Below are positions 2,796 through 29,929 of a DNA stretch of 35,359 nt, piece by piece. A model generated the notes under the pieces. It saw nothing but the letters and a program-made list of their open reading frames with translations, made no database searches and was not told the origin of the DNA. The stretch's first letter is position 1. Every line of letters begins with the position of its first letter. The position numbers and the translations under genes were made by a program. The stretch spans positions 1 through 35,359 of IMG/VR virus record IMGVR_UViG_3300013233_000302, one strand, 5' to 3'. This DNA comes from a virus.

Positions 2796-3196
2796 TGGCT
2801 ATCACACGTAAAACAAAAACAAAAAAGAAAAATAAAAAGATTACATTATCCGAATTCAGAGCCTGGCTAGAAGGGGTGGAAGAATTGCAGTTGGATGATT
2901 GGTCTCCAACTAATGACCAATGGGCACTCATCCGCAACAAGATAAATAATATTATCGAAGAAGTAATTGAGGTTGAAACTATGGTAGAATTGCCCACGCC
3001 GCCAGTAATTCCCCTAATGCCATCTCGGCTAGTGCCATCCCATGTACCACCAGCAACTGTGCAGGCACCACAATACGTTCCCATGCCTAGCTCGATATCA
3101 GCTCCTGCGCCAATGTTAACACCAGGTGCCGATGGAAAACTACCAACACCCAATATTGATTCATCTGATGGACAATATGACAGTGGTTTCGAATAG
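2795..3196 (+). CDS. Small protein with EFxAW-type motif and proline-rich tail
   Basis: 133 residues and the second member of the pair. A lysine-rich start (KTKTKKKNKK) precedes ITLSEFRAWLEG and the helix DQWALIRNKI; from about residue 65 the chain is proline- and alanine-rich and probably disordered. It starts in a TAATG overlap with the previous gene and its 3' end overlaps the start of the DnaE-like fragment by 20 bases, so all are probably one transcript. The conserved short domain with a variable tail suggests a peptide- or nucleic-acid-binding adaptor, but this is only a guess from shape. Confidence 0.65.
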   Translation: MAITRKTKTKKKNKKITLSEFRAWLEGVEELQLDDWSPTNDQWALIRNKINNIIEEVIEVETMVELPTPPVIPLMPSRLVPSHVPPATVQAPQYVPMPSSISAPAPMLTPGADGKLPTPNIDSSDGQYDSGFE

Positions 3197-3731
3197 TACT
3201 CAATTAAAGAATAGGATACTGTGGTATGATGGTGATTCCACAGTATCAGAATCAACCCTCAATACTTTAATATCTAACGGCACTTCATCCACCCAATTGT
3301 TTGTTGATTCAATATCAAACGACATATTGCAGTATAATCGGTTTGTTAGCAAGGGCGAACAAGTTAATATAAAACAATCACTATCCGAACTGAGCATGAA
3401 ATGGATAATGCCTGATCAGTATACCAAACTAGATATGAATCAGTACGTTATATCCAAGTTCGAACAGCACATTGATTCTTTTAATCTATCAGATATAGAG
3501 ATTGAAGTACGTGCTCGTCGAATTGCACGTGAGCTAACCATGTTTACCCATCACAAAATGTTTGATGTTTTACGCGTGCTTATTTTTGTTATAAATAAGT
3601 TAACAGATAACAATATAGTATGGGGCACTGGAAGGGGAAGTAGTGTAGCATCATATGTATTGTACTTAATCGGAGTGCATGATGTTGATAGTGTGCTATA
3701 TGAATTAGATATTAATGAATTTTTAAGATAA
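3177..3731 (+). CDS. DnaE-like polymerase, N-terminal fragment (GRGS palm segment)
   Basis: 184 residues from ATG 3177 (an in-frame ATG at 3126 would lie deep inside the previous gene). Residues about 145-184, with WGTGRGSSVASYVLYLIGV, then D-x-D-S-V-L-Y-E-L and EFLR, match the family C (Pol III alpha) palm segment, where GRGSGAGS is followed by LGI, DPLxY and ERFL. The N-terminal PHP domain of bacterial DnaE is absent. The protein stops exactly where DnaE would run into the PDxDxDF catalytic aspartate motif; that motif begins the separate gene at 16711. By itself this piece lacks the catalytic carboxylates. It could pair with the second fragment or be half of a broken gene. No intein sequence is fused to its end. 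Confidence 0.75.
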   Translation: MTVVSNSTQLKNRILWYDGDSTVSESTLNTLISNGTSSTQLFVDSISNDILQYNRFVSKGEQVNIKQSLSELSMKWIMPDQYTKLDMNQYVISKFEQHIDSFNLSDIEIEVRARRIARELTMFTHHKMFDVLRVLIFVINKLTDNNIVWGTGRGSSVASYVLYLIGVHDVDSVLYELDINEFLR

Positions 3732-3749
3732 CAATAATGGAGATCACAA

Positions 3750-4052
3750 ATGGGTAACACAGTTAGAAGCGCCAAAGGAGAGCTTGTTGATTTTGATTTG
3801 CTTAAAATCAAACAACAAATTGCATCATCCCCACCAACAACAGATGTACGAGCACGTCAAGATTTTATCGATAAGCGCTTGCGCCACCGAGTTAAAAAAG
3901 TACCAACCCCAGCTCCAAAAATCAATGCAGAACTTGATGTTGATGTTGATAAAAAACTACCTTCTCCTGTTGATATTGGGACTGATGGTAAATTTATTGA
4001 TGAAGTTAAACCAAAGAAAAGTTCACAAAAAGCTAGACCAAAATTAAAATAG
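3750..4052 (+). CDS. Conserved phage protein with SAKGE-VDFD N-terminus
   Basis: 100 residues. The N-terminus NTVRSAKGELVDFDLLKIKQ, followed by PPTTDVRARQDFID and a basic segment RLRHRVKK, resembles small conserved proteins I recall from large T4-like phages. The second half is lysine-, proline- and aspartate-rich and looks disordered. A GGAG ribosome site lies about 8 bases before the start. It follows the DnaE-like fragment by 18 bases and precedes the GroES-like gene by 8 bases, so they are probably co-transcribed. The function is unknown. Confidence 0.65.
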   Translation: MGNTVRSAKGELVDFDLLKIKQQIASSPPTTDVRARQDFIDKRLRHRVKKVPTPAPKINAELDVDVDKKLPSPVDIGTDGKFIDEVKPKKSSQKARPKLK

Positions 4053-4060
4053 GCACTCAA

Positions 4061-4360
4061 ATGACTGAATTAGTTGCACTACGTAATCACATCATCTTTC
4101 AATTTGAAAGCGAACAAACACGACACATGGGGTCGAAACAATTCGAAGAGAAGACAGATTGGGGATTGACATTTGTACGTGTGGATAGCAGCACAAAGTC
4201 TGCAAGATGGGGCACAGCAAAGATATTAGGCCCTGAATGCTCTGATGAAATCTCAGTGGGTTCGCGGATATTAATTGATGCTCTCCGGTGGTCTGAAGGT
4301 TTTGATTATGAAGGTGAACGTTATTGGCGCACAGACTCTAATCAAATTTTATTAGCATGA
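4061..4360 (+). CDS. Possible GroES-like co-chaperonin fold protein
   Basis: 99 residues, the length of a GroES subunit. It opens with LRNHIIFQFE, which resembles the first strand of GroES (PLxDRVLVR). A middle segment (residues about 34-46) with threonine and serine could be the mobile loop. ARWGTAKILGPE then resembles GxVxAVG, followed by ISVGSRILI (like VGDxVLF) and a C-terminal TDSNQILLA (like ESDILAI). T4 uses a phage GroES analogue (gp31) to fold its capsid protein; a similar role is possible here. The match is by pattern only and residue identity is low, so this is a suggestion rather than an assignment. Confidence 0.45.
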   Translation: MTELVALRNHIIFQFESEQTRHMGSKQFEEKTDWGLTFVRVDSSTKSARWGTAKILGPECSDEISVGSRILIDALRWSEGFDYEGERYWRTDSNQILLA

Positions 4361-4382
4361 CAGGATCACCCACATAACCAAC

Positions 4383-4390
4383 CATAAATA
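4383..4390 (+). promoter_or_regulatory. T4-type late promoter octamer (CATAAATA)
   Basis: CATAAATA ends 29 bases before the ATG of the membrane protein gene at 4420. The octamer NATAAATA with no -35 element is the late promoter of T4-like phages; the same octamer precedes several tail fibre genes here. Confidence 0.6.
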
Positions 4391-4419
4391 CCCTAAAGTT
4401 TAACAAAACGGAGAGTTTC

Positions 4420-5364
4420 ATGGGATTTATTGTAATTTTATTATTGACTACTTTATCGATTGCTGGTTCGGCTGCATTCTTTAGTGTGTATGGATTGGCA
4501 CAAATATTCACAGGATCGTTCATTCCCATAGTTATAATGGCTAGTTCACTGGAAGCTGGAAAGTTAGTTACGGCCTCTTATTTATCCCGATTTTGGGATA
4601 AAATGGGGTTCTTTGTAAAAACTTATCTTATATTGGCAGTAGTTGTATTGATGGTTATAACATCAGCCGGCATATTTGGATTTCTATCCTCCGCATATCA
4701 ACAAGATATAATGGGCACAAAAATAAATGAGCAACAGTCACAATTATTAGAAGATGATAATAGAAACCTGGCTGTACTCAAAACAGAACGCTTGTCCCGC
4801 AAAAAACAAATAGATGCTGATATATCAGCGTTACCCAATAATTATGTGACTGGTCGCGAACGATTAATGAAATCATATGGTGAAGAACTCAACCAGTTGA
4901 AGTTAGACATCCGAGAATACACACAAGAAATAAGAGACAACACAAAGAAAATTGCAGAACTCAAAGCAATCAATCTAGAACAGGAAGCACATATTGGTCC
5001 TATTATCTTCATCGCAAAAGTGTTTGATCAGGATATTGATAACACAACCAAGTGGCTAATTCTTATTATTATCATTGTGTTTGATCCACTTGCAGTAATG
5101 CTAACAGTCGCCACAAACAACGCAATAATGGAATATAAACGGGAGAAGAGAGGGCTTGCTATTGCACATGAATCTGCTGATATTCCTCCACCAATATCCA
5201 ATATAGCCACACCAGTGGAACAAACAGAAGAATTATTATCCACCCTTGATACCCAAAGTGATAAATCTCCCGAAGATGTAGCACAAGCGTCTATGTTAAC
5301 CGAAATGATTAACCGCAAAGCCGTAACTGAACAATTACGTACTGGTGTTATTGATCAGAAATAG
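4420..5364 (+). CDS. Membrane protein with large coiled-coil loop
   Basis: 314 residues. Three hydrophobic segments lie near residues 2-28, 32-54 and 68-97. A charged, heptad-like region (about 100-195, rich in K, E, Q and L) follows, then a fourth strong hydrophobic segment (about 212-235, with LILIIIIVFDPLAVM). The C-terminal tail is acidic and soluble. This makes a four-pass inner-membrane protein with a coiled-coil between the third and fourth segments. I recall similar proteins in marine T4-like phages without a known function. It has a late promoter octamer and a GGAG site before ATG 4420, so it is probably made late. Roles in lysis, exclusion or membrane attachment of virus factories are possible; the sequence does not choose among them. 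Confidence 0.75.
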   Translation: MGFIVILLLTTLSIAGSAAFFSVYGLAQIFTGSFIPIVIMASSLEAGKLVTASYLSRFWDKMGFFVKTYLILAVVVLMVITSAGIFGFLSSAYQQDIMGTKINEQQSQLLEDDNRNLAVLKTERLSRKKQIDADISALPNNYVTGRERLMKSYGEELNQLKLDIREYTQEIRDNTKKIAELKAINLEQEAHIGPIIFIAKVFDQDIDNTTKWLILIIIIVFDPLAVMLTVATNNAIMEYKREKRGLAIAHESADIPPPISNIATPVEQTEELLSTLDTQSDKSPEDVAQASMLTEMINRKAVTEQLRTGVIDQK

Positions 5365-5425
5365 TTGACATTACAATCTCTTCACTCTATAATATGTAAA
5401 AATAATAATTATAACGAAGAGATTG
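5365..5425 (+). promoter_or_regulatory. Consensus sigma70 promoter of the clamp loader operon with straddling inverted repeat
   Basis: TTGACA (5365-5370), 17-base spacer, TATAAT (5388-5393): a perfect consensus promoter starting right after the previous stop codon. The predicted start is near 5400. A perfect 10-base inverted repeat, CAATCTCTTC (5374-5383) and GAAGAGATTG (5416-5425), has its left arm in the promoter spacer and its right arm just upstream of the gp44 start, over the likely ribosome site. Only RNA reading through from upstream contains both arms. Confidence 0.85.
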
Positions 5426-5435
5426 CATCAACAAC

Positions 5436-6368
5436 ATGAACGCAGACAAACACGCACTATGGGTCGAGAAATATCGTCCCAAAACTTTAGATACATACAT
5501 ATTTCACGATTCCAACCAGAAAGCCGCTATAACGCGCATGATACAGGACCGAACGATTCCTCATCTACTTTTTTCTGGGGTACAGGGATCCGGCAAAACA
5601 ACAATTTCTCTAATCCTCATTAATGAGTTGGATATGGACCCAACAGATGTGCTAACATTGAATGCATCCGACGAGAACAGTGTGGATGTAATGAGAGACA
5701 AAATCAAAAATTTCATTACTACCTTCGCTATGGGTGATTTTAAAATCATTCACTTGGAAGAGGCCGATTATGTTACACTGTCTGGACAAGCAATCCTCCG
5801 TAAAATGATGGAAGACTATGCTGACACTGCCCGTTTCATACTCACATGCAATTACGAAAACAAAATTATACCAGCCGTCAAATCAAGAACTCAGCAATTT
5901 CGTTTTGTAAAACATGATGTAGATGAAGTCACTGCAGCTGTAGCAACCATATTATTAGCAGAACATGTTGCTTTTGATCTGGCTTTATTGGATAGTTACG
6001 TAAGAGTTGGTTTCCCTGATATACGCAAGATTATCAATATGGTTCAACAGAATTCAGTAGATGGTACGTTAATGCCTCTGGCTGCTACTGGTGATGCCGG
6101 TGATTACAAATTCAAACTACTTGATTTGTTATCAGCTGATGATTGGAGTGGAGCACGAACACTCACATGTGGGCAGGTAACACCAGAAGAATGGGAAGAT
6201 GTCTATCGATTTCTATATGAAAATTTGGACAAATCATCTAAGTTTTCAATCACATCAAAATGGGAAGAGGGTATTGTCGTGATAGCGGAGCACTTGTACA
6301 AACATTCTATATGTGCAGATGCGGAGATTAATGCCGCCGCTATGTATATCAGATTGGGACAAATATAA
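5436..6368 (+). CDS. 44: Sliding clamp loader large subunit (gp44-like AAA+ ATPase)
   Basis: 310 residues, close to T4 gp44 (319). It opens with WVEKYRPKTLD, typical of clamp loader ATPases. Walker A GVQGSGKT lies at 48-55, the Walker B equivalent HLEEAD at 106-111, sensor 1 TCNYENK at 137-143, and SRTQ at 150-153 stands for the SRC arginine finger motif. In T4, four gp44 subunits and one gp62 load the gp45 clamp on primed DNA using ATP. A consensus sigma70 promoter directly precedes the gene, and a gp62-like gene lies two genes downstream, so this is the replication operon. Walker B has EE instead of DE, as far as alignment by eye allows. Confidence 0.93.
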   Translation: MNADKHALWVEKYRPKTLDTYIFHDSNQKAAITRMIQDRTIPHLLFSGVQGSGKTTISLILINELDMDPTDVLTLNASDENSVDVMRDKIKNFITTFAMGDFKIIHLEEADYVTLSGQAILRKMMEDYADTARFILTCNYENKIIPAVKSRTQQFRFVKHDVDEVTAAVATILLAEHVAFDLALLDSYVRVGFPDIRKIINMVQQNSVDGTLMPLAATGDAGDYKFKLLDLLSADDWSGARTLTCGQVTPEEWEDVYRFLYENLDKSSKFSITSKWEEGIVVIAEHLYKHSICADAEINAAAMYIRLGQI

Positions 6369-6398
6369 CACACATAATAAATCGCCGGAGACTATGAA

Positions 6399-6740
6399 AT
6401 GGCTAGAAGGAAAGTACCAGAGTTCGAAACAACAGAAGAACACACACAACGAAAGACCCGAGAAATTATATCAAATACTGCCGATCGTTCCGAAAAAACT
6501 TCATGGAACAGGAAGATGGACAATATGGTAAAGTTAATGGCTCTCATCCGTCCAATTGAAGATTCAATATTGGATTTACAGGCACAGAAACAACCAGTGT
6601 TTGATGATATTCAAAAATTACGCAGCACTATGGTAAAGGAATGTGTTCACCCTTATGAATATATTGTAGCACTAAAAGATCATGCCCTTTGTAAATTTTG
6701 CAATAAGCGATTGACTATCCCAAATGCCGAAATCTCCTAA
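6399..6740 (+). CDS. Small zinc-binding protein in the clamp loader operon
   Basis: 113 residues: a basic N-terminal part with RKTREIISNTADRSEKTSW, a central helical stretch, and a C-terminal putative zinc site, ECVHPYEYI then LCKFCNKRL. This gives Cys, His and a C-x2-C pair. It sits between gp44 and the gp62-like gene and overlaps the latter by 17 bases, so the three are probably co-translated. Conserved small proteins of this type are known to me from T4-like marine phages, without an assigned function. A role with the clamp loader or with late transcription is a guess from position. Confidence 0.7.
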   Translation: MARRKVPEFETTEEHTQRKTREIISNTADRSEKTSWNRKMDNMVKLMALIRPIEDSILDLQAQKQPVFDDIQKLRSTMVKECVHPYEYIVALKDHALCKFCNKRLTIPNAEIS

Positions 6741-7203
6741 AACATATGCCCTTGATATATTTGACGTTCTCGGAAAAATAAGCAATAAAGATCATTCTTT
6801 TTATGGTAAGTTATCAACTGATGAGAAGAAAGCTCTACAACCTTTAGTTGTTATGCGGTGGTTAACTGGATCGTCTGATGCTGGTCAGCTTTATTTTCTT
6901 AATGAGTTTGTCAATCCATATGTATTTGGTTTCTCTAACCACAAAGAGTTGTTGGTACACTTGCTTACTGTATGCACTGGTGGACAACATCAACGATACA
7001 AATGGACAAAAAAACTGAGTAAAAAATCTCATGCCACTCCAATTACAATAAAAGTAATTGGGGAGTATTTTGGTTATAATTCAACACATGCATCAGAAGT
7101 GTTGTCTTTATTATCTGATGATGTTATTATAGATTATGCTGAACAATTAGGCAAACAACCAGATGAAATCAAATTAATTAAAAAAGAATTAAAGAAGAGA
7201 TAA
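6724..7203 (+). CDS. 62: Clamp loader small subunit, gp62-like
   Basis: 159 residues (T4 gp62 has 187). The pattern LQPLVVMRWLTGSSDAGQL, then FLNEF, LLVHLLTVC and a basic RYKWTKK matches the layout of gp62-family proteins in divergent T4-like phages (xVxRxLS, then NE, then LLNxIRxxKRxxxWxK). The C-terminus IKLIKKELKKR is basic. Position just after gp44 supports the call. The T4 protein is too divergent for the eye to align with certainty, so function rests on pattern plus context. Its role would be to form the fifth, non-ATPase subunit of the loader. The stop overlaps the next start (TAATG). Confidence 0.6.
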   Translation: MPKSPKTYALDIFDVLGKISNKDHSFYGKLSTDEKKALQPLVVMRWLTGSSDAGQLYFLNEFVNPYVFGFSNHKELLVHLLTVCTGGQHQRYKWTKKLSKKSHATPITIKVIGEYFGYNSTHASEVLSLLSDDVIIDYAEQLGKQPDEIKLIKKELKKR

Positions 7204-7883
7204 TGACAAAATACAAATATGAATGCAATTTTTGCTTGCGCAAGTTTGTAAGAGAAGGCGCATTCATAAAGCACCATTGCAAACAAATGATTAGAGATGA
7301 AGAATTCAGAACTAATATAGGGCAATCAGCTTGGGTTCATTATCAATCGTGGATGAGGGCTCACCATCGGATTGTTCCAGCACCATCTGCTTTCTTACAT
7401 TCCAAGTATTTTTTAGCATTTATTCGATTTGCGAAGTTGGTAAAGCGAACAGGTTTGCCTGAACCACAGAGATTTATTTGGTTAATGAAAGAAAACCAAA
7501 TCCCACCCACCATGTGGGCTGATGATGCTGTGTATAGCATGTATTTGGAATTTATAGATAGACGTGGTGATCCACTACAACAAGCAAATATAACAATCAA
7601 CACATTATTTGATGTTGCTGATGCGGCTGAGTGTGACGTTAGTGCAGTATTTGATATATTGACTCCAAATGATGTAATACAACTTCTACGCACTAGACGC
7701 ATGTCTCCGTGGTTTTTGCTTTTGAGCTCTAAATTTATGAAATTCTATGTTGATGGAGTAAAATCAGAAGAAAAGATTATAATGGAAACAATTATAAGAC
7801 CCACGTATTGGATTGAAAAATTTAAGAAAAATACAAACAAAGTTGCCAAAATTAAAGAATTTGTACAAGAACTAAATCTGTAG
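7203..7883 (+). CDS. Zinc-finger protein of the replication operon
   Basis: 226 residues. The N-terminus has a C2HC-type finger: C8 and C11 in ECNFCLRKF, then H24 and C26 or nearby in KHHCKQM. The remainder is helical and rich in aromatic residues (SAWVHYQSWM, SKYFLAFIRFAKLVKR, WADDAVYSMYLEFIDRR). It starts in a TAATG overlap with the gp62-like gene, so it is the last gene of the clamp loader operon. I recall this family as a conserved hypothetical of large T4-like phages. A DNA- or RNA-binding role in replication or translation control is likely from the finger and the context, but not shown. In T4 this position holds regA, which this protein does not resemble. Confidence 0.75.
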   Translation: MTKYKYECNFCLRKFVREGAFIKHHCKQMIRDEEFRTNIGQSAWVHYQSWMRAHHRIVPAPSAFLHSKYFLAFIRFAKLVKRTGLPEPQRFIWLMKENQIPPTMWADDAVYSMYLEFIDRRGDPLQQANITINTLFDVADAAECDVSAVFDILTPNDVIQLLRTRRMSPWFLLLSSKFMKFYVDGVKSEEKIIMETIIRPTYWIEKFKKNTNKVAKIKEFVQELNL

Positions 7884-7893
7884 TAACCAAACC

Positions 7894-7901
7894 CATAAAT
7901 A
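7894..7901 (+). promoter_or_regulatory. Late promoter octamer (CATAAATA) before fibre 1
   Basis: CATAAATA ends 33 bases before ATG 7935 and opens the adhesion cassette. Identical octamers at similar spacing precede fibres 2 and 3. Confidence 0.75.
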
Positions 7902-7934
7902 GCATATTACGGCTTACATTATAGGGATTTCCAG

Positions 7935-9770
7935 ATGGCACAAACACAGAATTACTTAATTACAAGTACAGATTCATCCACAACGTTTACGATACCACCA
8001 AAAACTTTCAGTGGGCCAACTGGTGTCCAGAAAAATACTGACTTGACGTTGTACGGAAATGCATCTATTGGGTGGGGTGAATCATTTAATAGCAATTTTT
8101 TCCGCCTACTTGAAAACTTTTCTTGCCAAGAAAAACCAACATCCCCTGGAATCCCACTTGATTTTTCTGATCTTGGTGGTGGGTTGGGTATCAACAATCC
8201 AGTCACAGGACAATTGTGGTTTAACAAAACTGACGGAAAAATGTATATCTATCGTACTACTGGATGGACTACACTAACAACAGGAACAGCCATTGGTGAT
8301 ATAGAAGGATTGGAATTTGCATTGTCTAATGTTGTGGCTAATGATGGTTCAGGTACCATAACCGGCACATTGGACATGAACAATAACAACATCACCAATG
8401 TAAAAGATCCAGTTACTGGTACTGATGCAATGTCACGTGATTTTACTGATGGTAGATACATACAGAGTGATGGCAGTACGACTGGATTGCCTGTTATTGA
8501 ATTTGCAGGTGGTATCACCATCCCACCATCTGGAAAAATATACCTTTCTTCCGATCAGACAGACGCTGGAGCTATATACAAATTCGAACCAGCCACTGAT
8601 GCATCTCATACCCGTATTCAGTTGTCTGACAATTTTAACTCTACTCTTGACATGTTATCTATTGGAACTGATGGTGTATCTGGATGGAACACCACAACTC
8701 TCATAGATGCAGCTGGAAATATAATAACAGCTGGTGATATTGACGGTAAAAACATTGTGGGGTCTAGCTTAACACTAACTTCCGGCACGAAGGGAATAAG
8801 TGCTAATACTATATCAGTGCATACTGTAACAGGTATAATAGACCCCAACGCAGTTATCAATCAAAATTCAGAACAGTTAATGTTAAACGCCGGTGAAACT
8901 GGTGGGGTAATACAGGAACAATCTGGCGAGATTGTTGCAGTAAACGCAGAAGGTGGACTTGTGATTAACTCATCTCCGGACAACTGGACAACTGGGTGGG
9001 CAGGCAGAATAACAACAAAAATAGACTCAACTGGGATAACCACTAGTGATATTGAGGCATCTGGAACATCAACCCTGGGTGAAGTTCTACTAAAAAGCTC
9101 TAACATTACAGGTGCAAAATTATACACAGATGTCAACAATAATTTTAATATTTCGCCATATTCAGGAGCAACTGAATTAACAATAAATCAATTTGGATAC
9201 AACGCCGCAACAAGCTCCTGGTATTTTGATTCCCCATTGTATGTCCCAACACCAACTAATGATTTCCATGCAGCCAACAAAGGATATGTGGATAGTTTAA
9301 CTACTGGTACCATTGTATTTGGAACAAATCTGTTTTTTCCTGGGACGTTTGGGCGTGTAAGTGCTGTATCTACTGCTGGTGATGGGAATTACCAGCAATT
9401 CACTGGACTGTTGGATTATGTAACTCCAATAATCATACCTATTCCTGGCGTTGGGGATGTTGCACTATACGATAGCATTCCAGCAAATGCAGACATGGCG
9501 TTGATACGTACTGTTATTGTGGTAGATGCCCCAAATACAACCATACGCCAATGTGTGGTCAACGTGCACTTCGATGCCAACGATATCACAAATTCAAACA
9601 CAATTGCAGGGACAGCAGGGCCATCAAACTCAACAGATCCAAATACTCCAGTATACGGCATAACCGAAACATGGATGCCAGTCATCAACCAATTAATAAC
9701 CACTCGTCAACTACTAAACTCTGGGGATGTGCAAATTGAAGTCTTTGTTGTCGCATATCACACTCCATAA
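7935..9770 (+). CDS. Tail fibre protein 1
   Basis: 611 residues. The N-terminal adaptor (about residues 15-95) has LTLYGNASIGWGE, NSNFFRLLENF and GQLWFNK, a signature shared with the fibres at 10413 and 13403 and common in T4-like marine phages. The middle is rich in G, T, N and S with repeated beta-strand-like segments, including LDMNNNNITNV-DP and AANKGYVD, typical of trimeric fibre shafts. The C-terminus is a separate beta-rich domain (from about 470) that probably binds receptor. No S74 chaperone is present. It leads an operon with a late promoter and is followed by a fibre-associated protein, which suggests the pair act together in host recognition. Confidence 0.85.
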   Translation: MAQTQNYLITSTDSSTTFTIPPKTFSGPTGVQKNTDLTLYGNASIGWGESFNSNFFRLLENFSCQEKPTSPGIPLDFSDLGGGLGINNPVTGQLWFNKTDGKMYIYRTTGWTTLTTGTAIGDIEGLEFALSNVVANDGSGTITGTLDMNNNNITNVKDPVTGTDAMSRDFTDGRYIQSDGSTTGLPVIEFAGGITIPPSGKIYLSSDQTDAGAIYKFEPATDASHTRIQLSDNFNSTLDMLSIGTDGVSGWNTTTLIDAAGNIITAGDIDGKNIVGSSLTLTSGTKGISANTISVHTVTGIIDPNAVINQNSEQLMLNAGETGGVIQEQSGEIVAVNAEGGLVINSSPDNWTTGWAGRITTKIDSTGITTSDIEASGTSTLGEVLLKSSNITGAKLYTDVNNNFNISPYSGATELTINQFGYNAATSSWYFDSPLYVPTPTNDFHAANKGYVDSLTTGTIVFGTNLFFPGTFGRVSAVSTAGDGNYQQFTGLLDYVTPIIIPIPGVGDVALYDSIPANADMALIRTVIVVDAPNTTIRQCVVNVHFDANDITNSNTIAGTAGPSNSTDPNTPVYGITETWMPVINQLITTRQLLNSGDVQIEVFVVAYHTP

Positions 9771-9791
9771 CCAGTACAGGAAAAATAAACA

Positions 9792-10370
9792 ATGTATACA
9801 TACTTTTATGATAGAATAACATTTAGATTGGTAGCTTCCATTATGGGCAGTGGAACTGCAACGGATGGAACAAATCAATACGATGCAACAAACACCCCAC
9901 TACCTAGTGATGATATATTCAACCCTGATACTCAATATGTGACATATGATGCATCAACTGAAAATTGGATTATAAATGAACGAACTGATTTATTATCCAA
10001 TGCACGTTCTGCAGCAAATTCCGAAATTGATAACGCGTCTGAACTTAAAAGACTTTCGTTTTTGACTCCAGGAGTTGGACAATCACTAATATACCAGAAG
10101 AAGGAGAAGGAGGCAGCTGATTATGTAGCAGCTGGATATCCAATCGATTTATCTAGTTACCCATTTATACAAGCAGAATCAAATGCCACTGGCAATTCAC
10201 CAACCGTATGTGCTGATAATATAGTAGCAATGTCAGCACAATGGATATTAGCAGGAGCATCAATTGAAGAAATTAGATTAACAGGGAAGAAGGCTGTTTC
10301 TGATGCTTCGGATGTTAGTGCAATTGAAGCAGCTGTACAGGTAGCAACATCAACACTTAAATTAGTGTAG
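9792..10370 (+). CDS. Fibre-associated protein (tail fibre assembly/DUF4376-like), copy A
   Basis: 192 residues. The C-terminal half has GVGQSLIYQKKEKEAADYV, then AGYPIDLSSYPFIQAE and IEEIRLTGKKAV. This arrangement (xGxxMIYxxKxxEAxxY, YPxIQAEA, IRLxGKKA) is nearly repeated in the gene at 16081, so they are paralogues. The pattern is typical of the small proteins following fibre genes in many phages, often annotated as DUF4376 or tail fibre assembly proteins. The N-terminus (YFYDRITFRLVASIMG) differs from copy B. It lies 21 bases after fibre 1 and probably helps fold or cap it, though it might be a structural tip. Confidence 0.6.
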   Translation: MYTYFYDRITFRLVASIMGSGTATDGTNQYDATNTPLPSDDIFNPDTQYVTYDASTENWIINERTDLLSNARSAANSEIDNASELKRLSFLTPGVGQSLIYQKKEKEAADYVAAGYPIDLSSYPFIQAESNATGNSPTVCADNIVAMSAQWILAGASIEEIRLTGKKAVSDASDVSAIEAAVQVATSTLKLV

Positions 10371-10378
10371 CATAAATA
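10371..10378 (+). promoter_or_regulatory. Late promoter octamer (CATAAATA) before fibre 2
   Basis: CATAAATA begins directly after the stop of the preceding gene and ends 34 bases before ATG 10413. A ribosome site AAGGAG lies between them. Confidence 0.75.
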
Positions 10379-10412
10379 ACACAAAGAATTAGCAATAAGG
10401 AGATATTACCAC

Positions 10413-12797
10413 ATGAGTGGCGCATACCTAATCGAAAATACATCTGGTGGATTAAGTTTCACTATAAATCCAGGAAGAATTGATGGCCCACGTAGCACAA
10501 CCTCAAGAAATTCAGATCTTAGTTTGTATGGTGATGGCACTACTCAGTGGGGAGCAGGGATACAAACAAACATCTTCCGACTAGCAGAAAACTTTGCATG
10601 TTTTTCAAAAGTGGATGGTGACCATCTTCCTGTTTATTTGGGTGGAACAACAGGCACAGTTCCGAATACTGATTATTTGGTGTCTGTTAATGGATCTGCT
10701 CCAAAAGATGAAGTAGATCTTGGAGTTGGTAGAGGCATCTCATTGCCATTAGTGGGACAATCTTGGTACAACACTGATAGTAATATCTTTCTCATATGGA
10801 CAGGATCACAGTGGAAGATTGTAGGTGGAGCAACATTTGATGGAACAATCACTGTTTCCACCACCGAACCCAGAATCGAACTTGTCGATCCATCTGAAGC
10901 TGTAAATGAAAAATGGTGGGATGTTGTAGCTTCTGGTAGCAATTTCAACATTCAATCATATGATGATGCCCATGTTGCGTTTGATGTCGCAATATCAATA
11001 CCAAGAACTGGTATTGTAGCGGGGGTTCCACGAATAACAGATGGTTCTGGAAATTTAAATGATATATTGCATATTGGTGGCGGACAGACAATAAACGATC
11101 TCACTGTCAGTCCCAACAGCTTAACAGTTATTCGTGATATCATAAAAAATCCAGAAGATTTTAGAGTGGCTGTCGTCAATTGGGATAACATGACATCTCC
11201 TGGTTATTATATGATGGATGGGGGAAATGACATAAACCAACCTGTTGGTGGAGTTTGGAGTTGGCACCTGCAAGTATTTTCAGCGAACAACCAAGTTAAC
11301 CACGTTGTGCAAATTGCATATAAACATGAAAATACATTCCATCGTCAACACATGAGGCACTATGCTGTCGCTACTGGATGGACAGCTTGGGCAGAAACCA
11401 TGCACACTGAAGGTGGACAAATAATATCCGGCAACTTCCAAGCAGATGATGTTATTATCACTAACGGTGGTACAGTATCAACAACTGGAATTACATTAAA
11501 TGAGGGCAATGGCAATGCAGGAGTAGGTCCAGATATTTCAATGACAGCTTCTGGTTTGATTACTGCCGGTGATAATATGTATATGTTGATAGACAGTACA
11601 AACATATCAACAGTTAGACAATTCATATGGGGCCACAACAACAACAAAGTAGATGGGAATACTAACTATTTGATGCAACTAGGACAAGATGCCAGACTGG
11701 ATATATATGGTTCGGCTCGTATTGGCTCAGACACAATAGGAAGCGCATCCTCCCTTCTTGAGTTTAGAGATCGTTCTGGTGGAGCCTGGCGCTCGATCAC
11801 ATGGGATGATGCTGATAGTGACTTCAAAATAGAAGACAATACTGGTGCATTATACAGTATCATACATTCAGGTGGCAACCAAATAATAGATGGGTTATTA
11901 ACATTATCTGATAATACCGCAACTAACGGCTGTACTATGATACAATCCAAATACACTGCCGGCAATAATGACTTTTTGAACATTATTGGGTCTCAATACT
12001 CAACTGCATCCACTGTAATTAGTTATGCTGTCCGTCCAAAACAAAATTCCGCTGGATATATATCATCTGCAGATAATGTTCCATTATCCAGAGCAGTGAT
12101 TGAAATTGGAGGCGGAACTGGCACTACTGCAATGAAAGTATTGGCAGCCAACTCAAGTACAGTTACTGTAGGTTCTGATGTCAACATGACTACAGTATTG
12201 ACGGTTGATGCTGATGGAAGTGTGAACACCATTAAAGGTGATTTATTACACACTAACGGAAACCAAACAATAACAAACAACTTGAATATTAACGGCACAT
12301 TAGGGGTTGGATCTGTTGAATTGAACCGTGGAAATGGGTCTGTTAGCAATGCTTCAGACATATACATGAACAGTCAAGGACTGATAGCAACTGACAATGG
12401 AATGCATTTTAATATAATAACATCTGGATCGTTTGATTGGCGAGTTGGCAATGAGACATCATCAGCACCTGTAGTTATGACGTTGACAGACACAGGCGCA
12501 TTAACAACAGTTGGTGATATCACTGCATTCTCTGACATAACATTAAAAACAAATATCAATCCAATCGAAAATGCACTAAGCAAATTATCACAGATACGTG
12601 GTGTTACTTTTGATAGAACTGACATAGATATGGATAGACAAGCCGGTGTAATTGCACAGGAAGTTGAGAAAGTATTACCAGAAGTAGTCCGCACTAATGG
12701 TGATGGTATAAAGTCAGTTGCGTATGGCAATCTTGTTAGCCTACTAATAGAAGCTGTTAAAGAATTGAAAGCTGAAGTGGATGAGTTGAAAAAATAA
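10413..12797 (+). CDS. Tail fibre protein 2 with C-terminal S74 intramolecular chaperone
   Basis: 794 residues. The N-terminal adaptor (LSLYGDGTTQWGAG, NIFRLAENFACF, GQSWYNT) matches fibres 1 and 3. A shaft of repeated short beta segments follows (several copies of the type HSGGNQIIDGLLTL). From about residue 707, SDITLKTNI, DRQAGVIAQEVEKVLPE, VAYGNLVSLLIEAVKELK is the peptidase S74 domain, which trimerises the fibre and then cuts itself off; the serine at about 707 is the expected cleavage residue. This family includes the endosialidase and T5 L-shaped fibre chaperones. Its stop overlaps the next ATG. The mature product is probably a trimeric late fibre or spike. Confidence 0.92.
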   Translation: MSGAYLIENTSGGLSFTINPGRIDGPRSTTSRNSDLSLYGDGTTQWGAGIQTNIFRLAENFACFSKVDGDHLPVYLGGTTGTVPNTDYLVSVNGSAPKDEVDLGVGRGISLPLVGQSWYNTDSNIFLIWTGSQWKIVGGATFDGTITVSTTEPRIELVDPSEAVNEKWWDVVASGSNFNIQSYDDAHVAFDVAISIPRTGIVAGVPRITDGSGNLNDILHIGGGQTINDLTVSPNSLTVIRDIIKNPEDFRVAVVNWDNMTSPGYYMMDGGNDINQPVGGVWSWHLQVFSANNQVNHVVQIAYKHENTFHRQHMRHYAVATGWTAWAETMHTEGGQIISGNFQADDVIITNGGTVSTTGITLNEGNGNAGVGPDISMTASGLITAGDNMYMLIDSTNISTVRQFIWGHNNNKVDGNTNYLMQLGQDARLDIYGSARIGSDTIGSASSLLEFRDRSGGAWRSITWDDADSDFKIEDNTGALYSIIHSGGNQIIDGLLTLSDNTATNGCTMIQSKYTAGNNDFLNIIGSQYSTASTVISYAVRPKQNSAGYISSADNVPLSRAVIEIGGGTGTTAMKVLAANSSTVTVGSDVNMTTVLTVDADGSVNTIKGDLLHTNGNQTITNNLNINGTLGVGSVELNRGNGSVSNASDIYMNSQGLIATDNGMHFNIITSGSFDWRVGNETSSAPVVMTLTDTGALTTVGDITAFSDITLKTNINPIENALSKLSQIRGVTFDRTDIDMDRQAGVIAQEVEKVLPEVVRTNGDGIKSVAYGNLVSLLIEAVKELKAEVDELKK

Positions 12798-13321
12798 TGG
12801 CACTGCAAAACACAGGTCCTATTAGTTGTAGTGATATTCAAGCTGAATATGGTGGAACTTCCCCAATATCATTAAGTGAATATTACAATAGAGCAAACGC
12901 TCCAGTATCATCTGGTCCGATATCAATGGGTCTTCATTTTTACGGAACAGGTATCACATTCGACCTAGCATTAACTGTATATACCCCATGGGTGAATGAT
13001 AATACATATTTTGAGGTAACAGCCCACCTCACTCTAGATCCAACAAGCATACAACCAAACACTATAAATGGTTTTCAGTTTAATTTTATACAATATCGTG
13101 ATTTTAACCAAGGAAGTGGCATTCTAATCACGATTGAGATTATTGGGGTGGCACCACAAAATTTATTTGAGTATGCATACCACTCATCTCTGGGATATCT
13201 ATATACTAACAATTTATATAGTTACAGCACCTCAACGGGCAACACCATATATCAGTGGCGTCAAGCCGCCAGTGTTGCAGATTGGAGAACAGGAACTCCA
13301 ACAACAATCACCATAGAATAG
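12797..13321 (+). CDS. Small tail/virion protein with GPIS-type repeat
   Basis: 174 residues. It begins MALQNTGPISCSDIQAEYGG then SPISLSEYYNRAN and SSGPISMGLHFYGTG, a repeated short motif (GPIS-x-[SG] then an aromatic) found at the start of many small proteins in marine phage tail regions. The rest is beta-rich and threonine/asparagine-rich without cysteines. It starts in a TAATG overlap with fibre 2, so it is probably a partner or tip protein of that fibre. The exact place in the virion is unknown. Confidence 0.65.
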   Translation: MALQNTGPISCSDIQAEYGGTSPISLSEYYNRANAPVSSGPISMGLHFYGTGITFDLALTVYTPWVNDNTYFEVTAHLTLDPTSIQPNTINGFQFNFIQYRDFNQGSGILITIEIIGVAPQNLFEYAYHSSLGYLYTNNLYSYSTSTGNTIYQWRQAASVADWRTGTPTTITIE

Positions 13322-13360
13322 TGCAATCTATCATCATTAATATTATTCTGTATACGTTTG

Positions 13361-13368
13361 CATAAATA
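13361..13368 (+). promoter_or_regulatory. Late promoter octamer (CATAAATA) before fibre 3
   Basis: CATAAATA ends 34 bases before ATG 13403, in an 81-base non-coding gap. Confidence 0.75.
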
Positions 13369-13402
13369 TTAGTAAAATAGTTATAATGCACGCGAGAATA
13401 AT

Positions 13403-15451
13403 ATGACCCAAAAATATATCATTAACTTCACTGATCCTTTTAAACCTGCATTTAGTGTACGAGAGTACACAACTGACGGCCCATTGTTTCCTATATCCAC
13501 CACTTTGACTGATACTGCAGTATCTGCATTCACTTCATTTATTACATACGGAAAAGGACATCCAGAGTATGGGGAACGACTACAAGAAAACACAATACAT
13601 TTACTGGAAAATTTCTCAGGTGATATTGAACCACAATATCCAATTGTTGGCCAAGTGTGGCATTCGTATTTCTCTCATATAAAAACCGATGATAATAATT
13701 GGTATAAGTGGGATATTAGCACCAATACGTGGAATATTATTACTATTAATACATCTCAACCAGCAACAACTCACGGGGTGTATTGGCTAGATTCTGCGGT
13801 TCCAGGTAATGCTATACTGAAACAAGGGGTAGATACTTCCGATCATCCGTTATCTCCCACATTCATCACTCATGAATATATTGACTTAACTGCATCTAGT
13901 GGTAGAACCCAAGTAATAACAAACCCAAACACTGAAGGTTTTGAGCCGATACACACAATGAGAGTGTGGAATGGAAATAATTGGGAAAGTTCAAATGCGG
14001 TTCACGTATCACCATCAGAACCATTACTGGAAACAGGAACGCTGTGGTATGATAGTGCAAATAGCAAATTATATATTCGCGACAGTAATACCACATGGGC
14101 AGATGTTACTGGAGGGTTGTTAGGGCAATCTGGTGGACAACTGTCTGGTGATCTGGATATGAATGGATACAAAATCATAAATGTCCCAGATCCAATAAAC
14201 AACCAAGACGCAGCCACACTAAAGTGGACCACTGATTGGACCACTGCACAATTCAGCACCCAATCACACACCCATTCCCTGCTTAATTTGAGTGATGTTA
14301 ATACCACACCACCAACAAACCAACAGTTTCTACAGTATAACACATCAATCAATCAGTGGGTTTCATCAGGGTTGACAGTTGTTGATTTGGGTGATATTTC
14401 AGTTTCTGCCAGTGAAATCAACTTCTTGGCTGGCACTACTGCTGTTATACAAACACAGATAGATTCAAAGCTAAATCTGTCTGGTGGAGTATTATCCGGA
14501 ACACTAGATATGAATATGAACCGAATAGCTAGTGTTTTATCCCCTGTGTTTCCAGATGATGCTGCAACACTACAGTACGTTCAAGATCAAATAACTGCAG
14601 CCTCAGGTGATAATTTCGTTAATGGAGCATCATTGGACACTAATATTGGAACTGCTACTGAGGGCGATCTTACAATATCATTCAACAATGCAGCTGATAT
14701 TATTGTCCCAGGGTTTGCTGTTCTTGGGTCATCAACTGGAAATGGAGATCCGAATGATTTTACTCCAGATTCATCATCTATATTAGAAGAATGGCAGGTA
14801 GTTGATTTATCGGAATCAGTACGTGCACTAGAGGGTATAATAAAACTCCGCACATCAAACAACAGATCTGTAGTTGTATTAGGATCAAATGCCACAGTAG
14901 TTGCATGTCCAAATTACATTGTTGGGTCAGAAGGTCTATGTGTTCACGTGAACGGCATTAAATACTTAGCAAATACAAGAGGTAGATCAGCTGTTGTTCG
15001 TAGTGTGGCACCCCCACTCAATTTGGATACACCAACGTTACTGACCCCTGGTGTTGCTTACACATTTGACATAAATGTCAACGGAATTGGAAATACCATA
15101 GTATCTGTCAACGGAACAAATGCAACAACGTATGGGGATTTGATAACAGACATAAATTTTCAATTGGCAACGAATAATACTAATGCGACCGCCATATTCA
15201 TTCCTGGTGGCGATCTTATATTCTTTTCTGATTCTGATGGAGTGGGGTCTTCAGTTGTTATTACAAATACAGGCACAAACCAACTATTTGTTGCATTAAG
15301 TTCGACGATATTGGCTGGTGACGCTAGCCTTGACTTAGGATACTCCGAAGTTGATGGATATGGTAGTATCCAGAACTCCATAACATTTAACACTGCTCAA
15401 CCAACTGGCACTACAATTGAATTTGTAGTGTTTGGTGGACTGAAACTTTAA
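13403..15451 (+). CDS. Tail fibre protein 3
   Basis: 682 residues. A variant of the shared adaptor lies at about 45-90 (TYGKGHPEYGERLQE, NTIHLLENFSG, VGQVWHS). Two further segments resemble phage baseplate or fibre modules: LWYDSANSKLYIRD, and twice LSGDLDMNGYKI or LSGTLDMNMNRI followed by DDAATLQYVQ, which are shaft repeats that also occur in fibre 1. The C-terminal domain (from about residue 470) is beta-rich and lacks an S74 chaperone. It is followed by a C1q-like protein and by fibre-associated copy B, making a second fibre module parallel to that of fibre 1. Confidence 0.85.
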   Translation: MTQKYIINFTDPFKPAFSVREYTTDGPLFPISTTLTDTAVSAFTSFITYGKGHPEYGERLQENTIHLLENFSGDIEPQYPIVGQVWHSYFSHIKTDDNNWYKWDISTNTWNIITINTSQPATTHGVYWLDSAVPGNAILKQGVDTSDHPLSPTFITHEYIDLTASSGRTQVITNPNTEGFEPIHTMRVWNGNNWESSNAVHVSPSEPLLETGTLWYDSANSKLYIRDSNTTWADVTGGLLGQSGGQLSGDLDMNGYKIINVPDPINNQDAATLKWTTDWTTAQFSTQSHTHSLLNLSDVNTTPPTNQQFLQYNTSINQWVSSGLTVVDLGDISVSASEINFLAGTTAVIQTQIDSKLNLSGGVLSGTLDMNMNRIASVLSPVFPDDAATLQYVQDQITAASGDNFVNGASLDTNIGTATEGDLTISFNNAADIIVPGFAVLGSSTGNGDPNDFTPDSSSILEEWQVVDLSESVRALEGIIKLRTSNNRSVVVLGSNATVVACPNYIVGSEGLCVHVNGIKYLANTRGRSAVVRSVAPPLNLDTPTLLTPGVAYTFDINVNGIGNTIVSVNGTNATTYGDLITDINFQLATNNTNATAIFIPGGDLIFFSDSDGVGSSVVITNTGTNQLFVALSSTILAGDASLDLGYSEVDGYGSIQNSITFNTAQPTGTTIEFVVFGGLKL

Positions 15452-15463
15452 AGGAACATTCAA

Positions 15464-16078
15464 ATGGCTCAACCAACAGTAGAACAATTTCAAATAGGAA
15501 CGATTGATGCGGATAGTGTCAATGGTGCTACAGTAGGGAGTGGTGCGAATCAGATAGTGCAACTTGACGGTTCTGGTAATTTGCCTGCTCTTGATGCTTC
15601 ACAGCTTGTCAATCTACCAACATCCGCGTATGGTGTTACCGTATCAAATGACGTAGATCCCACTGTAGTTCCTGCTAACACTACCACCATCATTAATTTA
15701 AGCACAATCCGTGATGATATGGGTGGTGCAGGAGCAGATTATGATAGTGTGACCAATCTATTCACACCAACGAAAGCTGGGTGGTATGCAGTCGGGGTGT
15801 CCGTCTTGTTTTCCCCGGATGCGGTTCTTTCTGGTGTATTTTCCGTAAGCATGGGGACTATTGGAGGAATGCCAACTGCAAAGGATTGGATAGTTCCTGT
15901 TACTTCTGGGGGACTTGGTTCTGTCCTGGTTCAGGCAAATGGAGTGAAATATTGTGACGGAGCAACAACAACGATAGGTGGGTATGCTTATAGTACCAAT
16001 TCATCCACAATTCCTGTTCCTATATTAGCAGGTCTTAATACGAATACATACATATACGCATATTTCATTGGAGAATAA
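15464..16078 (+). CDS. C1q/TNF-like jelly-roll tail protein
   Basis: 204 residues. The N-terminal third has NQIVQLDGSGNLPALDASQL, a motif common in fibre shafts. From about residue 70 the chain reads like a C1q-type jelly roll: VVPANTTTIINL, then NLFTPTKAGWYAVGVSVLF (the usual FT-x-P-x-x-G-x-Y core strand), and a closing NTYIYAYFIGE. Such domains form trimers and often bind receptors at fibre tips. The gene has an AAGGA ribosome site and follows fibre 3 by 12 bases. It is probably an additional receptor-binding or capping protein of that fibre. Confidence 0.7.
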   Translation: MAQPTVEQFQIGTIDADSVNGATVGSGANQIVQLDGSGNLPALDASQLVNLPTSAYGVTVSNDVDPTVVPANTTTIINLSTIRDDMGGAGADYDSVTNLFTPTKAGWYAVGVSVLFSPDAVLSGVFSVSMGTIGGMPTAKDWIVPVTSGGLGSVLVQANGVKYCDGATTTIGGYAYSTNSSTIPVPILAGLNTNTYIYAYFIGE

Positions 16079-16080
16079 CA

Positions 16081-16635
16081 ATGCCGTCAATTAACATCAT
16101 CGCCCAAAATTATGATATTCCTGCATTGCTTGCTTCTGCTGGACAACCAGATAACACACAAGCAGTATATAACAGCAAACTCAACATATTAGCAGTACAG
16201 GGAGTAACACAATCTGCATTAGATGCTGCGTTTGTCGCTGCGACTCCGTTGGATATGTTATCAATATCAAAAACCAACAACAAAACTAAAATTGATTCAA
16301 CTGCAGAACAGGCTAGACGTAGATACATTACTGTTGGTGATGGACAATCAATGATATATCAAGAAAAAAGCGAAGAAGCAACAGATTATATCGCAGCAGG
16401 ATATCCTGTTGATCTGACTCCATATCCACTAATACAAGCCGAAGCCACCGCAATGGGGATTAGTTCTACAATAGCGGCCGACACTATCATATCACAGAAA
16501 TCAATGTGGGTTGGTATAGGATCAACAATCGAATTAATCCGACTTACTGGGAAAAAAGCGATAACAGACGCTACAACTCAATTAGAGATTGATTCTGCAG
16601 TGACAACAGCTATTGATTCGTTATTGTTGGTATAA
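16081..16635 (+). CDS. Fibre-associated protein (tail fibre assembly/DUF4376-like), copy B
   Basis: 184 residues, paralogue of the protein at 9792. Shared segments are RRYITVGDGQSMIYQEK, EEATDYIAAGYPVDLTPYPL, IQAEATAMG, and IELIRLTGKKAI in the same order and spacing. The N-terminus (IIAQNYDIPALLASAGQP) is different, so a common C-terminal core has been joined to different N-termini, one per fibre module. It starts 2 bases after the C1q-like gene and ends the adhesion cassette. Confidence 0.6.
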   Translation: MPSINIIAQNYDIPALLASAGQPDNTQAVYNSKLNILAVQGVTQSALDAAFVAATPLDMLSISKTNNKTKIDSTAEQARRRYITVGDGQSMIYQEKSEEATDYIAAGYPVDLTPYPLIQAEATAMGISSTIAADTIISQKSMWVGIGSTIELIRLTGKKAITDATTQLEIDSAVTTAIDSLLLV

Positions 16636-16649
16636 TAGCAATAGAGTAG

Positions 16650-16678
16650 TTGATTCTGTCTCCAATATGTGGTATATT
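16650..16678 (+). promoter_or_regulatory. Sigma70 promoter before the DnaE-like C-terminal fragment
   Basis: TTGATT (16650-16655), 17-base spacer, TATATT (16673-16678). The predicted start is near 16685, giving a leader of about 26 bases without a Shine-Dalgarno sequence. It gives the second polymerase fragment its own early expression, separate from the late adhesion genes. Confidence 0.6.
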
Positions 16679-16710
16679 ATTATCAATAATTACCTTATGT
16701 TTCAAAAATA

Positions 16711-17301
16711 ATGGATGTAGATATAGATTTCCCAACAACGTTTTCACCTCTTGATATATTTGACACTGCGGTACGCGCGTCTCGAGTTCAAGATGGGGTA
16801 TTAAAAAAACACAATGCTGGAATATATTTCCAAGAAATACCAACGGACGTATTAACTGGATTGGCAGCAATACCGTACAAAGATGCAGAAGAATTAGGAT
16901 ATTTTAAAATAGATTTTTTGCATCTGTCAATATTGGATAATTTCAAATCAAAAGATGAAATTCGAATATTGCTCCGCAAGGAACCTGATTGGAATTTGTT
17001 GCAAAGCCCTGAAGTGGTAATAAAGTTATTTCAACTTCATAATCATTTTGATTTGGTATCCAGAGTTCGCCCAGTGTGTGTTAATGATTTGGCAGATTGT
17101 ATTGCATTAATTAGACCTTCCAAGCGTGCGTTAATCCCCAAGTATTTAGAGGAAAGAACCAGAAATAACTTAACACAAATTAGAAAGATATTATACGCAA
17201 AACCAGTAAATGGAGGACCGTATTACAAAAAGCCACATTCAATAGGATATGCTCTGACTATAGTTTTGCAATTGCATTTGATAAAGGCTGGCATTTTATA
17301 A
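16711..17301 (+). CDS. DnaE-like polymerase, C-terminal fragment (catalytic aspartates and fingers)
   Basis: 196 residues, starting at the catalytic motif: MDVDIDFP aligns with the PDFDVDF motif of Pol III alpha. KKHNAGIYFQEIP (32-44) matches KHAGGVVIAP; YFKIDFLHLSILD (64-76) matches VKFDFLGLRTL with the third catalytic aspartate at D68. VIKLFQLHNHFDLVSRVRP (103-121) and IALIRPSKR (131-139) match the fingers (VFQLES, LxP, IALxRPG), and KKPHSIGYALT (173-183) matches NKSHSAAYAL. The thumb is almost absent: about 60 residues separate the aspartate motifs instead of about 150 in E. coli. The GRGS segment is in the gene at 3177. Seven in-frame codons before the ATG (after a TAA at 16687) read LPYVSKI, which could be a remnant of a longer ancestor. 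It has no Shine-Dalgarno. Confidence 0.75.
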   Translation: MDVDIDFPTTFSPLDIFDTAVRASRVQDGVLKKHNAGIYFQEIPTDVLTGLAAIPYKDAEELGYFKIDFLHLSILDNFKSKDEIRILLRKEPDWNLLQSPEVVIKLFQLHNHFDLVSRVRPVCVNDLADCIALIRPSKRALIPKYLEERTRNNLTQIRKILYAKPVNGGPYYKKPHSIGYALTIVLQLHLIKAGIL

Positions 17302-22091: not shown

Positions 22092-22113
22092 CAATAATAT
22101 AAGAGGAACCAAA

Positions 22114-29503: not shown

Positions 29504-29929
29504 ATGACTGTTACCACGCAAGATGATATTAATAATAATCTAGTTAAGCACATCATAGAATTAAAAGATACTGTGTTCAGGATGCAACAATATCTAGTTA
29601 ACGAAAAAATACACGAAGAAGCATATCACAACCAACGTAATATCATACACAGAACTAATTTTTGCAACACCAACACTATCACTTGTTGTGTAGAAGGTAG
29701 AGCTGATGAGGTTGTTATGCAATTGTTCATTCAAAACCCTGATGGGAGTGTGTTTGCCAATGCACCACACACTGTAACGTGTTCCGGTAATATAGTGACT
29801 ATCACATTAAATAGTGAATACACAGGATATGTGAACATTATTGATATCAACAATATTGTTTTTCGTGGGAATGTTGATATTAATTACAGCTTTCCGTCAA
29901 TGTCTTCGGTTGAAATCCCTCATGGATAA
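29504..29929 (+). CDS. Hypothetical beta-rich protein, 141 aa
   Basis: Not recognised. A helical N-terminus (HIIELKDTVFRMQQYLVNEK) is followed by a beta-rich part with IQNPDGSVFANAPHTVTCSG then NIVTITLNSEYTGYVNIIDI, which reads like an immunoglobulin-like or fibre-type domain. I chose ATG 29504, after the dUTPase stop. Its end overlaps the exonuclease start by 8 bases. The helix plus beta-sandwich shape would fit a small virion or adsorption protein, but the location among metabolism genes does not support this strongly. Confidence 0.6.
   Translation: MTVTTQDDINNNLVKHIIELKDTVFRMQQYLVNEKIHEEAYHNQRNIIHRTNFCNTNTITCCVEGRADEVVMQLFIQNPDGSVFANAPHTVTCSGNIVTITLNSEYTGYVNIIDINNIVFRGNVDINYSFPSMSSVEIPHG

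What the first reader, a model, noticed from the sequence alone, without database searches (positions are those of the whole stretch)
3177..17301. Very small DnaE-like polymerase split into two genes 13 kb apart
The gene at 3177-3731 ends with the GRGS...EFLR palm segment of Pol III alpha and stops just before the catalytic motif. The gene at 16711-17301 begins with that motif (MDVDIDF), has the third catalytic aspartate (KIDF, D68) and ends with finger motifs including KKPHSIGYAL. Joined they give about 380 residues, without PHP domain and with almost no thumb, far below the roughly 1,100 of bacterial DnaE. All catalytic residues are kept, both pieces have open frames, and the second has its own sigma70 promoter, so a working two-chain polymerase is possible. 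No intein is fused to either piece. Seven in-frame codons before ATG 16711 (LPYVSKI) may be leftovers of an unsplit ancestor. That the adhesion cassette came between the halves is inference.
Basis: partly seen in the sequence, partly recalled or inferred. Interest (0 to 1): 0.85.

Follow-up and report, generated by a model that had tools for sequence, protein, structure and literature searches.

The report
Two-gene minimal DnaE polymerase, jumbo phage
This phage encodes a very small relative of the bacterial replication enzyme DnaE as two separate proteins, an arrangement already described in many giant phages; new here is that each half's gene is kept close to a gene of the machinery that loads the replication clamp.

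Summary
The gene at 3177-3731 encodes the first half of a family C (DnaE) palm and stops just before the catalytic DxD motif. The gene at 16711-17301 starts at that motif and carries the third aspartate and the fingers. Predicted structures place the halves on E. coli DnaE residues 281-393 and 401-782. The split is not recent and not caused by the tail-fibre genes between the halves. All 15 jumbo phages tested (XacN1, RaK2, 121Q, PA5oct, Atu_ph07 and others) carry exactly one N gene and one C gene, always apart. Iyer et al. 2021 (PMC7824862) already described this minimal, split Pol III alpha, so this is a new member of a known kind. Catalytic residues are invariant in about 100 homologues of each half, which argues for a working two-chain enzyme beside the phages' family B polymerase. 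One pattern I did not find in that paper: the N gene lies 0.7-4.0 kb upstream of the clamp-loader large-subunit gene in 16 of 16 records, and the C gene follows a gp62-like small-subunit gene and a phrog_11058 gene in most. In the window's clade these form one cluster, into which tail-fibre genes were inserted. Assembly and activity are untested.

The parts
3177..3731 (+). N half of the split minimal DnaE: first part of the palm with GRGS, plus about 75 extra N-terminal residues; stops right after EFLR
   Evidence: PF07733 40.8 bits, phrog_11127 2e-41; model residues 82-184 on E. coli DnaE 281-393, Z 13.1; 40% identical to XacN1 N protein
16711..17301 (+). C half of the split minimal DnaE: catalytic DVD (D2, D4), third Asp D68, fingers to the KKPHSIGYA helix
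   Evidence: phrog_11778 8e-65, PF17657 about 22 bits; model 1-196 on E. coli DnaE 401-782, Z 11.0; 55% identical to XacN1 C protein
5436..6368 (+). Clamp-loader large subunit (T4 gp44 / RFC type); its gene lies just downstream of the N-half gene in 16 of 16 records
   Evidence: phrog_168 2.5e-67, PF00004; distances
6724..7203 (+). Probable clamp-loader small subunit (T4 gp62 type); in most relatives about 1 kb upstream of the C-half gene
   Evidence: phrog_225 'clamp loader' 1.9e-7; synteny
7203..7883 (+). phrog_11058 protein of unknown function with a CxxC...HHC motif at its N-terminus; in most relatives the gene next to the C half
   Evidence: phrog_11058 1.4e-45; 73 of 80 C loci carry it
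7935..16635 (+). Tail-fibre / adhesin cassette lying between phrog_11058 and the C half in this lineage (also XacN1, RAS14, L130), absent in L057, L063, L142 and others
   Evidence: tail-fibre PHROGs and Peptidase_S74; synteny
29841..30560 (+). Stand-alone DnaQ-like 3'-5' exonuclease, candidate proofreader; link to the split polymerase is inference only
   Evidence: phrog_192 'DNA polymerase exonuclease subunit' 1.1e-19; PF00929 21.3 bits, below cut-off 24

Best explanation
The two proteins are complementary halves of one minimal family C (DnaE-type) polymerase catalytic core that most likely come together without covalent joining. The N half supplies the first palm elements and the GRGS loop that holds the nucleotide triphosphate; the C half supplies the three metal-binding aspartates, the catalytic lysine and the fingers helix with the conserved histidine. 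The chain break is fixed at the loop equal to E. coli DnaE residues 393-401. The enzyme has no PHP domain, no clamp-binding or OB domains and little thumb, so it probably depends on partners for processivity; the conserved gene clusters point to the clamp loader and clamp. It acts beside the phage's family B polymerase as a second polymerase (lagging strand, gap filling or repair). Shown here: homology, residue conservation, fold, separateness, co-occurrence with PolB in relatives, clamp-loader synteny. Inferred: physical assembly, polymerase activity, the clamp-loader link at protein level, and the role.
For: Family hits for both halves. Structures consecutive on DnaE: 281-393 and 401-782. 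Invariant G150, G152, R153, G154, S155 in 94 N and D2, D4, D6, K66, D68, R135, H176, Y180 in about 101 C homologues. At least 592 N and 582 C relatives in IMG/VR. Exactly one N and one C in 15 of 15 jumbo phages, and both in 12 of 15 large viral contigs tested, many of them incomplete (the G004 match is the separate mini-DnaE). PolB in 15 of 15 relatives, PolA and PHP in none. N 0.7-4.0 kb upstream of the clamp-loader large-subunit gene on the same strand in 16 of 16. gp62-like - phrog_11058 - C order in 11 jumbo phages and most contigs; in the window, XacN1 and RAS14 the same genes are joined to N's cluster. Independent published description of the split (PMC7824862).
Against: No experiment and no prediction of the two-chain complex. 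The two genes may be expressed at different times. The window is a 35 kb fragment, so its own PolB is not seen. Conserved gene neighbourhoods in phages can reflect shared ancestry rather than physical interaction.
Confidence: 0.75

Rival explanations
1. The halves assemble, but into a non-polymerising nucleotidyltransferase or a regulatory/structural element of the clamp loader, not a DNA polymerase.
For: Thumb and processivity domains are missing, D2 to D68 is only 66 residues, and PolB is present in all relatives as the likely main replicase. Tight synteny with clamp-loader genes.
Against: Not only the metal-binding aspartates but also fingers residues (R135, K138, K174, H176, Y180) are kept.
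Confidence: 0.17
2. Recently broken gene: an insertion (tail fibres, intron, intein or homing endonuclease) fractured a single polymerase gene in this phage, and the pieces are remnants or are rejoined by trans-splicing.
For: Two homing endonuclease genes lie in the window (142-1908, 23237-24790), and tail-fibre genes lie between the halves.
Against: The same break point occurs in all 15 jumbo phages and over 90 homologues of each half; gene order even differs (C 29-44 kb upstream of N in RaK2- and PA5oct-type phages); no single ORF bears both halves; no Rfam intron in the window; no intein domain on either piece; both genes have own starts and stops.
Confidence: 0.03
3. Decaying remnant without function, kept by chance.
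For: About 380 residues against about 1,160 in E. coli DnaE.
Against: Invariant catalytic residues over very divergent homologues and consistent presence of both halves.
Confidence: 0.03

Closest known systems
Split minimal DNA polymerase III alpha of 'group 2.2' jumbo phages (Iyer et al. 2021, Viruses 13:63, PMC7824862); phrog_11127 + phrog_11778
   Same: Same break between the NTP-binding part and the metal/template-binding part, separate genes, no other Pol III domains; phages the paper names in this group, such as Atu_ph07, are hit directly.
   Different: The paper speaks only of distantly located genes; here, and in relatives, each half is found beside a clamp-loader subunit gene, and in this clade both halves are in one cluster about 5-15 kb across.
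Bacterial DnaE (E. coli Pol III alpha, PDB 2hnh, 4jom)
   Same: Palm and fingers fold, GRGS, DxD, third Asp, KSH-type fingers helix.
   Different: Two chains; no PHP, little thumb, shortened fingers, no clamp-binding and OB domains; about 380 aa against about 1,160.
Single-chain mini-DnaE (about 562 aa) in contigs L072, L074, L095, L098, L107, L113
   Same: Phage family C polymerase without PHP; encoded downstream of the split C gene in the same contigs.
   Different: One chain, longer, clear PF07733 (149.6 bits) and PF17657 (54 bits) hits; a distinct second enzyme, not a fused form of the split one.
T4 replication cluster 45-44-62-regA-43 (from general knowledge)
   Same: Large clamp-loader gene, small clamp-loader gene, one further gene, then a polymerase gene.
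   Different: The polymerase piece is family C, not family B gp43, and the first half sits upstream of the gp44-like gene.

Membership tests
Split minimal Pol III alpha of jumbo phages (phrog_11127 + phrog_11778) | N protein of phrog_11127 and C protein of phrog_11778 in separate genes | tested here: met
   2e-41 and 8e-65
Split minimal Pol III alpha of jumbo phages (phrog_11127 + phrog_11778) | Break just before the catalytic DxD, no PHP in either chain | tested here: met
Split minimal Pol III alpha of jumbo phages (phrog_11127 + phrog_11778) | Co-occurs with a family B polymerase | tested here: inconclusive
   Met in all 15 relatives; the window is a 35 kb fragment without PolB
Family C DNA polymerase (DnaE/PolC) | GRGS motif and three catalytic aspartates | tested here: met
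   present in the window and invariant across 94 N and about 101 C homologues
Family C DNA polymerase (DnaE/PolC) | Pol beta-like palm and family C fingers fold | tested here: met
   Z 13.1 and 11.0 to E. coli DnaE, far above unrelated rows
Family C DNA polymerase (DnaE/PolC) | PHP domain at the N-terminus (typical of cellular members) | tested here: not met
   no PF02811 in the window or in 15 relatives; so it is a reduced relative, not a standard DnaE
Family C DNA polymerase (DnaE/PolC) | Template-directed DNA synthesis | not testable with these tools
   needs purified proteins
Split-intein DnaE (cyanobacterial type) | Intein halves fused to the two extein pieces | tested here: not met
   no intein/Hint domain in either protein; N stops right after EFLR, C starts at the DxD motif
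Gene fractured by a group I/II intron | Intron halves flanking the exons | tested here: not met
   no Rfam match at gathering threshold in the window

The most novel reading that the evidence does not exclude
The halves form an obligate two-chain polymerase delivered to DNA by the clamp loader itself: the N half works with the large loader subunit and the C half with the small one (perhaps through the phrog_11058 protein), so that polymerase assembly is coupled to clamp loading. This would be among the smallest natural family C polymerases, and one whose active site is made only when its loader brings the chains together.
Probability: 0.2. Interest if true: 0.85.

Novelty: new member of a known kind. 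Interest (0 to 1): 0.48.

Why it matters
If active, it would be a family C polymerase of about 380 residues whose active site is shared between two chains, far smaller than cellular DnaE, and a second replicative-type enzyme beside a T4-like PolB in a large group of giant phages. The clamp-loader synteny gives a concrete partner to test. It also bears on the proposal of Iyer et al. that such minimal versions resemble an ancestral Pol III.

Tried and rejected
Search for N-half relatives with the single protein in IMG/VR gave none; an alignment was needed. A fused N+C ORF was sought in about 200 loci and not found. The long ORFs hit by the N profile (566-568 aa) are a separate single-chain mini-DnaE, and the 1109-aa ORF in L003 is an ordinary DnaE. 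The extra N-terminal 75 residues were searched as a profile in 10 relatives and the window: no second copy. The promoter before the C gene is not above chance. T4-late TATAAATA sites are at chance level. Weak PF07733 hits at profile positions 132-226 in several relatives lie in frames with several stops and were left aside. The two-chain complex could not be predicted with the tools given. A recent review of jumbo phages (PMC13282480) does not use the term DNA polymerase in the text held.

Full report
What was checked. The window is a 35,359-base virus record, a linear fragment. The N protein (184 aa) is recognised by PF07733 over its last 73 residues (40.8 bits, cut-off 23.9) and by phrog_11127 over its whole length. 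The C protein is recognised by phrog_11778 over its whole length and marginally by PF17657. Against solved structures by sequence alone the best, weak, hits of both are E. coli DnaE, at 342-392 and 591-642.

Structure. With alignments of 71 and 67 viral sequences, AlphaFold2 gave models of mean pLDDT 93.6 (N) and 96.2 (C). N residues 82-184 superpose on E. coli DnaE 281-393 (Z 13.1, rmsd 2.0, 103 aligned). C residues 1-196 superpose on 401-782 (Z 11.0, rmsd 3.5, 190 aligned). The next unrelated rows are at Z 4.4 and 3.7. The halves are therefore consecutive pieces of one catalytic core, cut in the short loop before the catalytic DxD. The first 75 or so residues of N do not align with DnaE, and a profile of them finds no other copy in ten relatives. 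The spacing from D2 to D68 is 66 residues, against about 154 in E. coli (D401 to D555, general knowledge), so the thumb region is largely missing. There is no PHP in the window or in 15 relatives.

Relatives. tblastn in the phage collection finds both halves as separate genes in many cultured jumbo phages. Fifteen were examined whole: each has exactly one N gene and one C gene, a family B polymerase and no family A polymerase. Of 15 large viral contigs, 12 show both. In no fetched locus do the two lie in one ORF. Across 94 N and about 101 C homologues the residues expected to bind nucleotide and metal are invariant. In the 16 N and 17 C proteins aligned by eye, N ends one to four residues after the conserved E-F, and C begins within about 20 residues of D-x-D-x-D.

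Origin of the gap. The signed distance from N to C is +13 to +15 kb in the window, XacN1 and RAS14, -29 to -44 kb in RaK2-, 121Q-, GAP32- and PA5oct-type phages, and over 100 kb in Atu_ph07, Phosso and SCTP-2. A recent insertion in the window's lineage therefore cannot have caused the split. In 14 IMG/VR contigs the order is N - 3750 - 4061 - 4420 - clamp loader - (6399) - 6724 - 7203 - C. In L057, L063 and L142 the 7203 homologue directly abuts C. In the window, XacN1, RAS14 and L130 tail-fibre genes stand between 7203 and C. So the tail-fibre genes probably widened an existing gap; the direction of that change is inference.

Clamp-loader synteny. The N gene lies 702-4,036 bases upstream of the gene for the clamp-loader large subunit (phrog_168), same strand, in all 16 records, although they are very divergent. 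The C gene is preceded by a gp62-like small-subunit gene (6724-7203; phrog_225 at 1.9e-7) and then a phrog_11058 gene in most of the records. By simple tblastn 73 of 80 IMG/VR C loci carry the phrog_11058 gene and 55 the gp62-like gene, mostly within 0.5 kb and 1.3 kb of C. With profiles all of PA5oct, Atu_ph07, Phosso, SCTP-2, RaK2, Vibrio 2.275.O, CBB, XaC1, 121Q, Hallingskeid and Munch show the order. In SCTP-2 the pair is about 3.5 kb away; in XacN1 and RAS14 the tail-fibre genes intervene. Each half thus travels with one of the two clamp-loader genes. I did not find this in Iyer et al.. It recalls the T4 order 45-44-62-regA-43 (general knowledge). It is consistent with a replication role, but it is not evidence of contact.

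Prior knowledge. Iyer et al. [quoted passage not shown] The finding is therefore a new member of a known kind.

Mechanism proposed. N and C associate non-covalently and rebuild the active site; the GRGS loop of N faces D2, D4 and D68 of C. Without clamp-binding and thumb regions the enzyme should need help, and the clamp loader, the clamp, and the DnaQ-like exonuclease (29841-30560) are candidate partners. Homology, fold and conservation are shown; assembly, activity, partners and role are inferred.

Details not upheld. The promoter claimed before the C gene is not above chance. LPYVSKI is preceded by TAA, and XacN1 and RAS14 start at the same methionine, so it is not a remnant of an unsplit gene.

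Noticed in passing
L113:15115-16815, L072:8872-10572, L074:15998-17701, L098:8745-10442, L107:16145-17830, L095:6203-7879: A second, single-chain family C polymerase of about 562 aa without PHP, encoded about 5-6 kb downstream of the split C gene; closest record an unannotated 484 kb uncultured phage (LR756508.1, 38%). Two different minimal DnaE enzymes in one genome.
   Followed up: partly
window 7203-7883: phrog_11058, unknown function with a possible zinc-binding N-terminus, kept next to the split C gene and the gp62-like gene in most jumbo phages; a candidate third subunit.
   Followed up: partly
window 142-1908 and 23237-24790: Two homing-endonuclease-like genes (phrog_559/phrog_3339) with a similar core (DIYLPEY..AIEYNGLYWHSD...FEDEW).
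   Followed up: no
window 29841-30560: Stand-alone DnaQ-like exonuclease (phrog_192), possible proofreader.
   Followed up: no
window 22051-23178: By eye resembles a GTP cyclohydrolase of the FolE2 type (STCPCS motif); not tested.
   Followed up: no
window 18300-19898: Protein with a long Asp/Glu-rich repeat stretch (EFEDDEFED...); function unknown.
   Followed up: no
window 32722-34434: Protein with RCC1-like repeats by eye and a C-terminal tail of KHSKKANKHSK repeats.
   Followed up: no
Atu_ph07 NC_042013.1 58304-58798 (L007:482-976): The annotated start of the C gene is too far downstream and leaves out the catalytic DxD motif; the open frame includes MKNIPDIDIDF upstream.
   Followed up: yes
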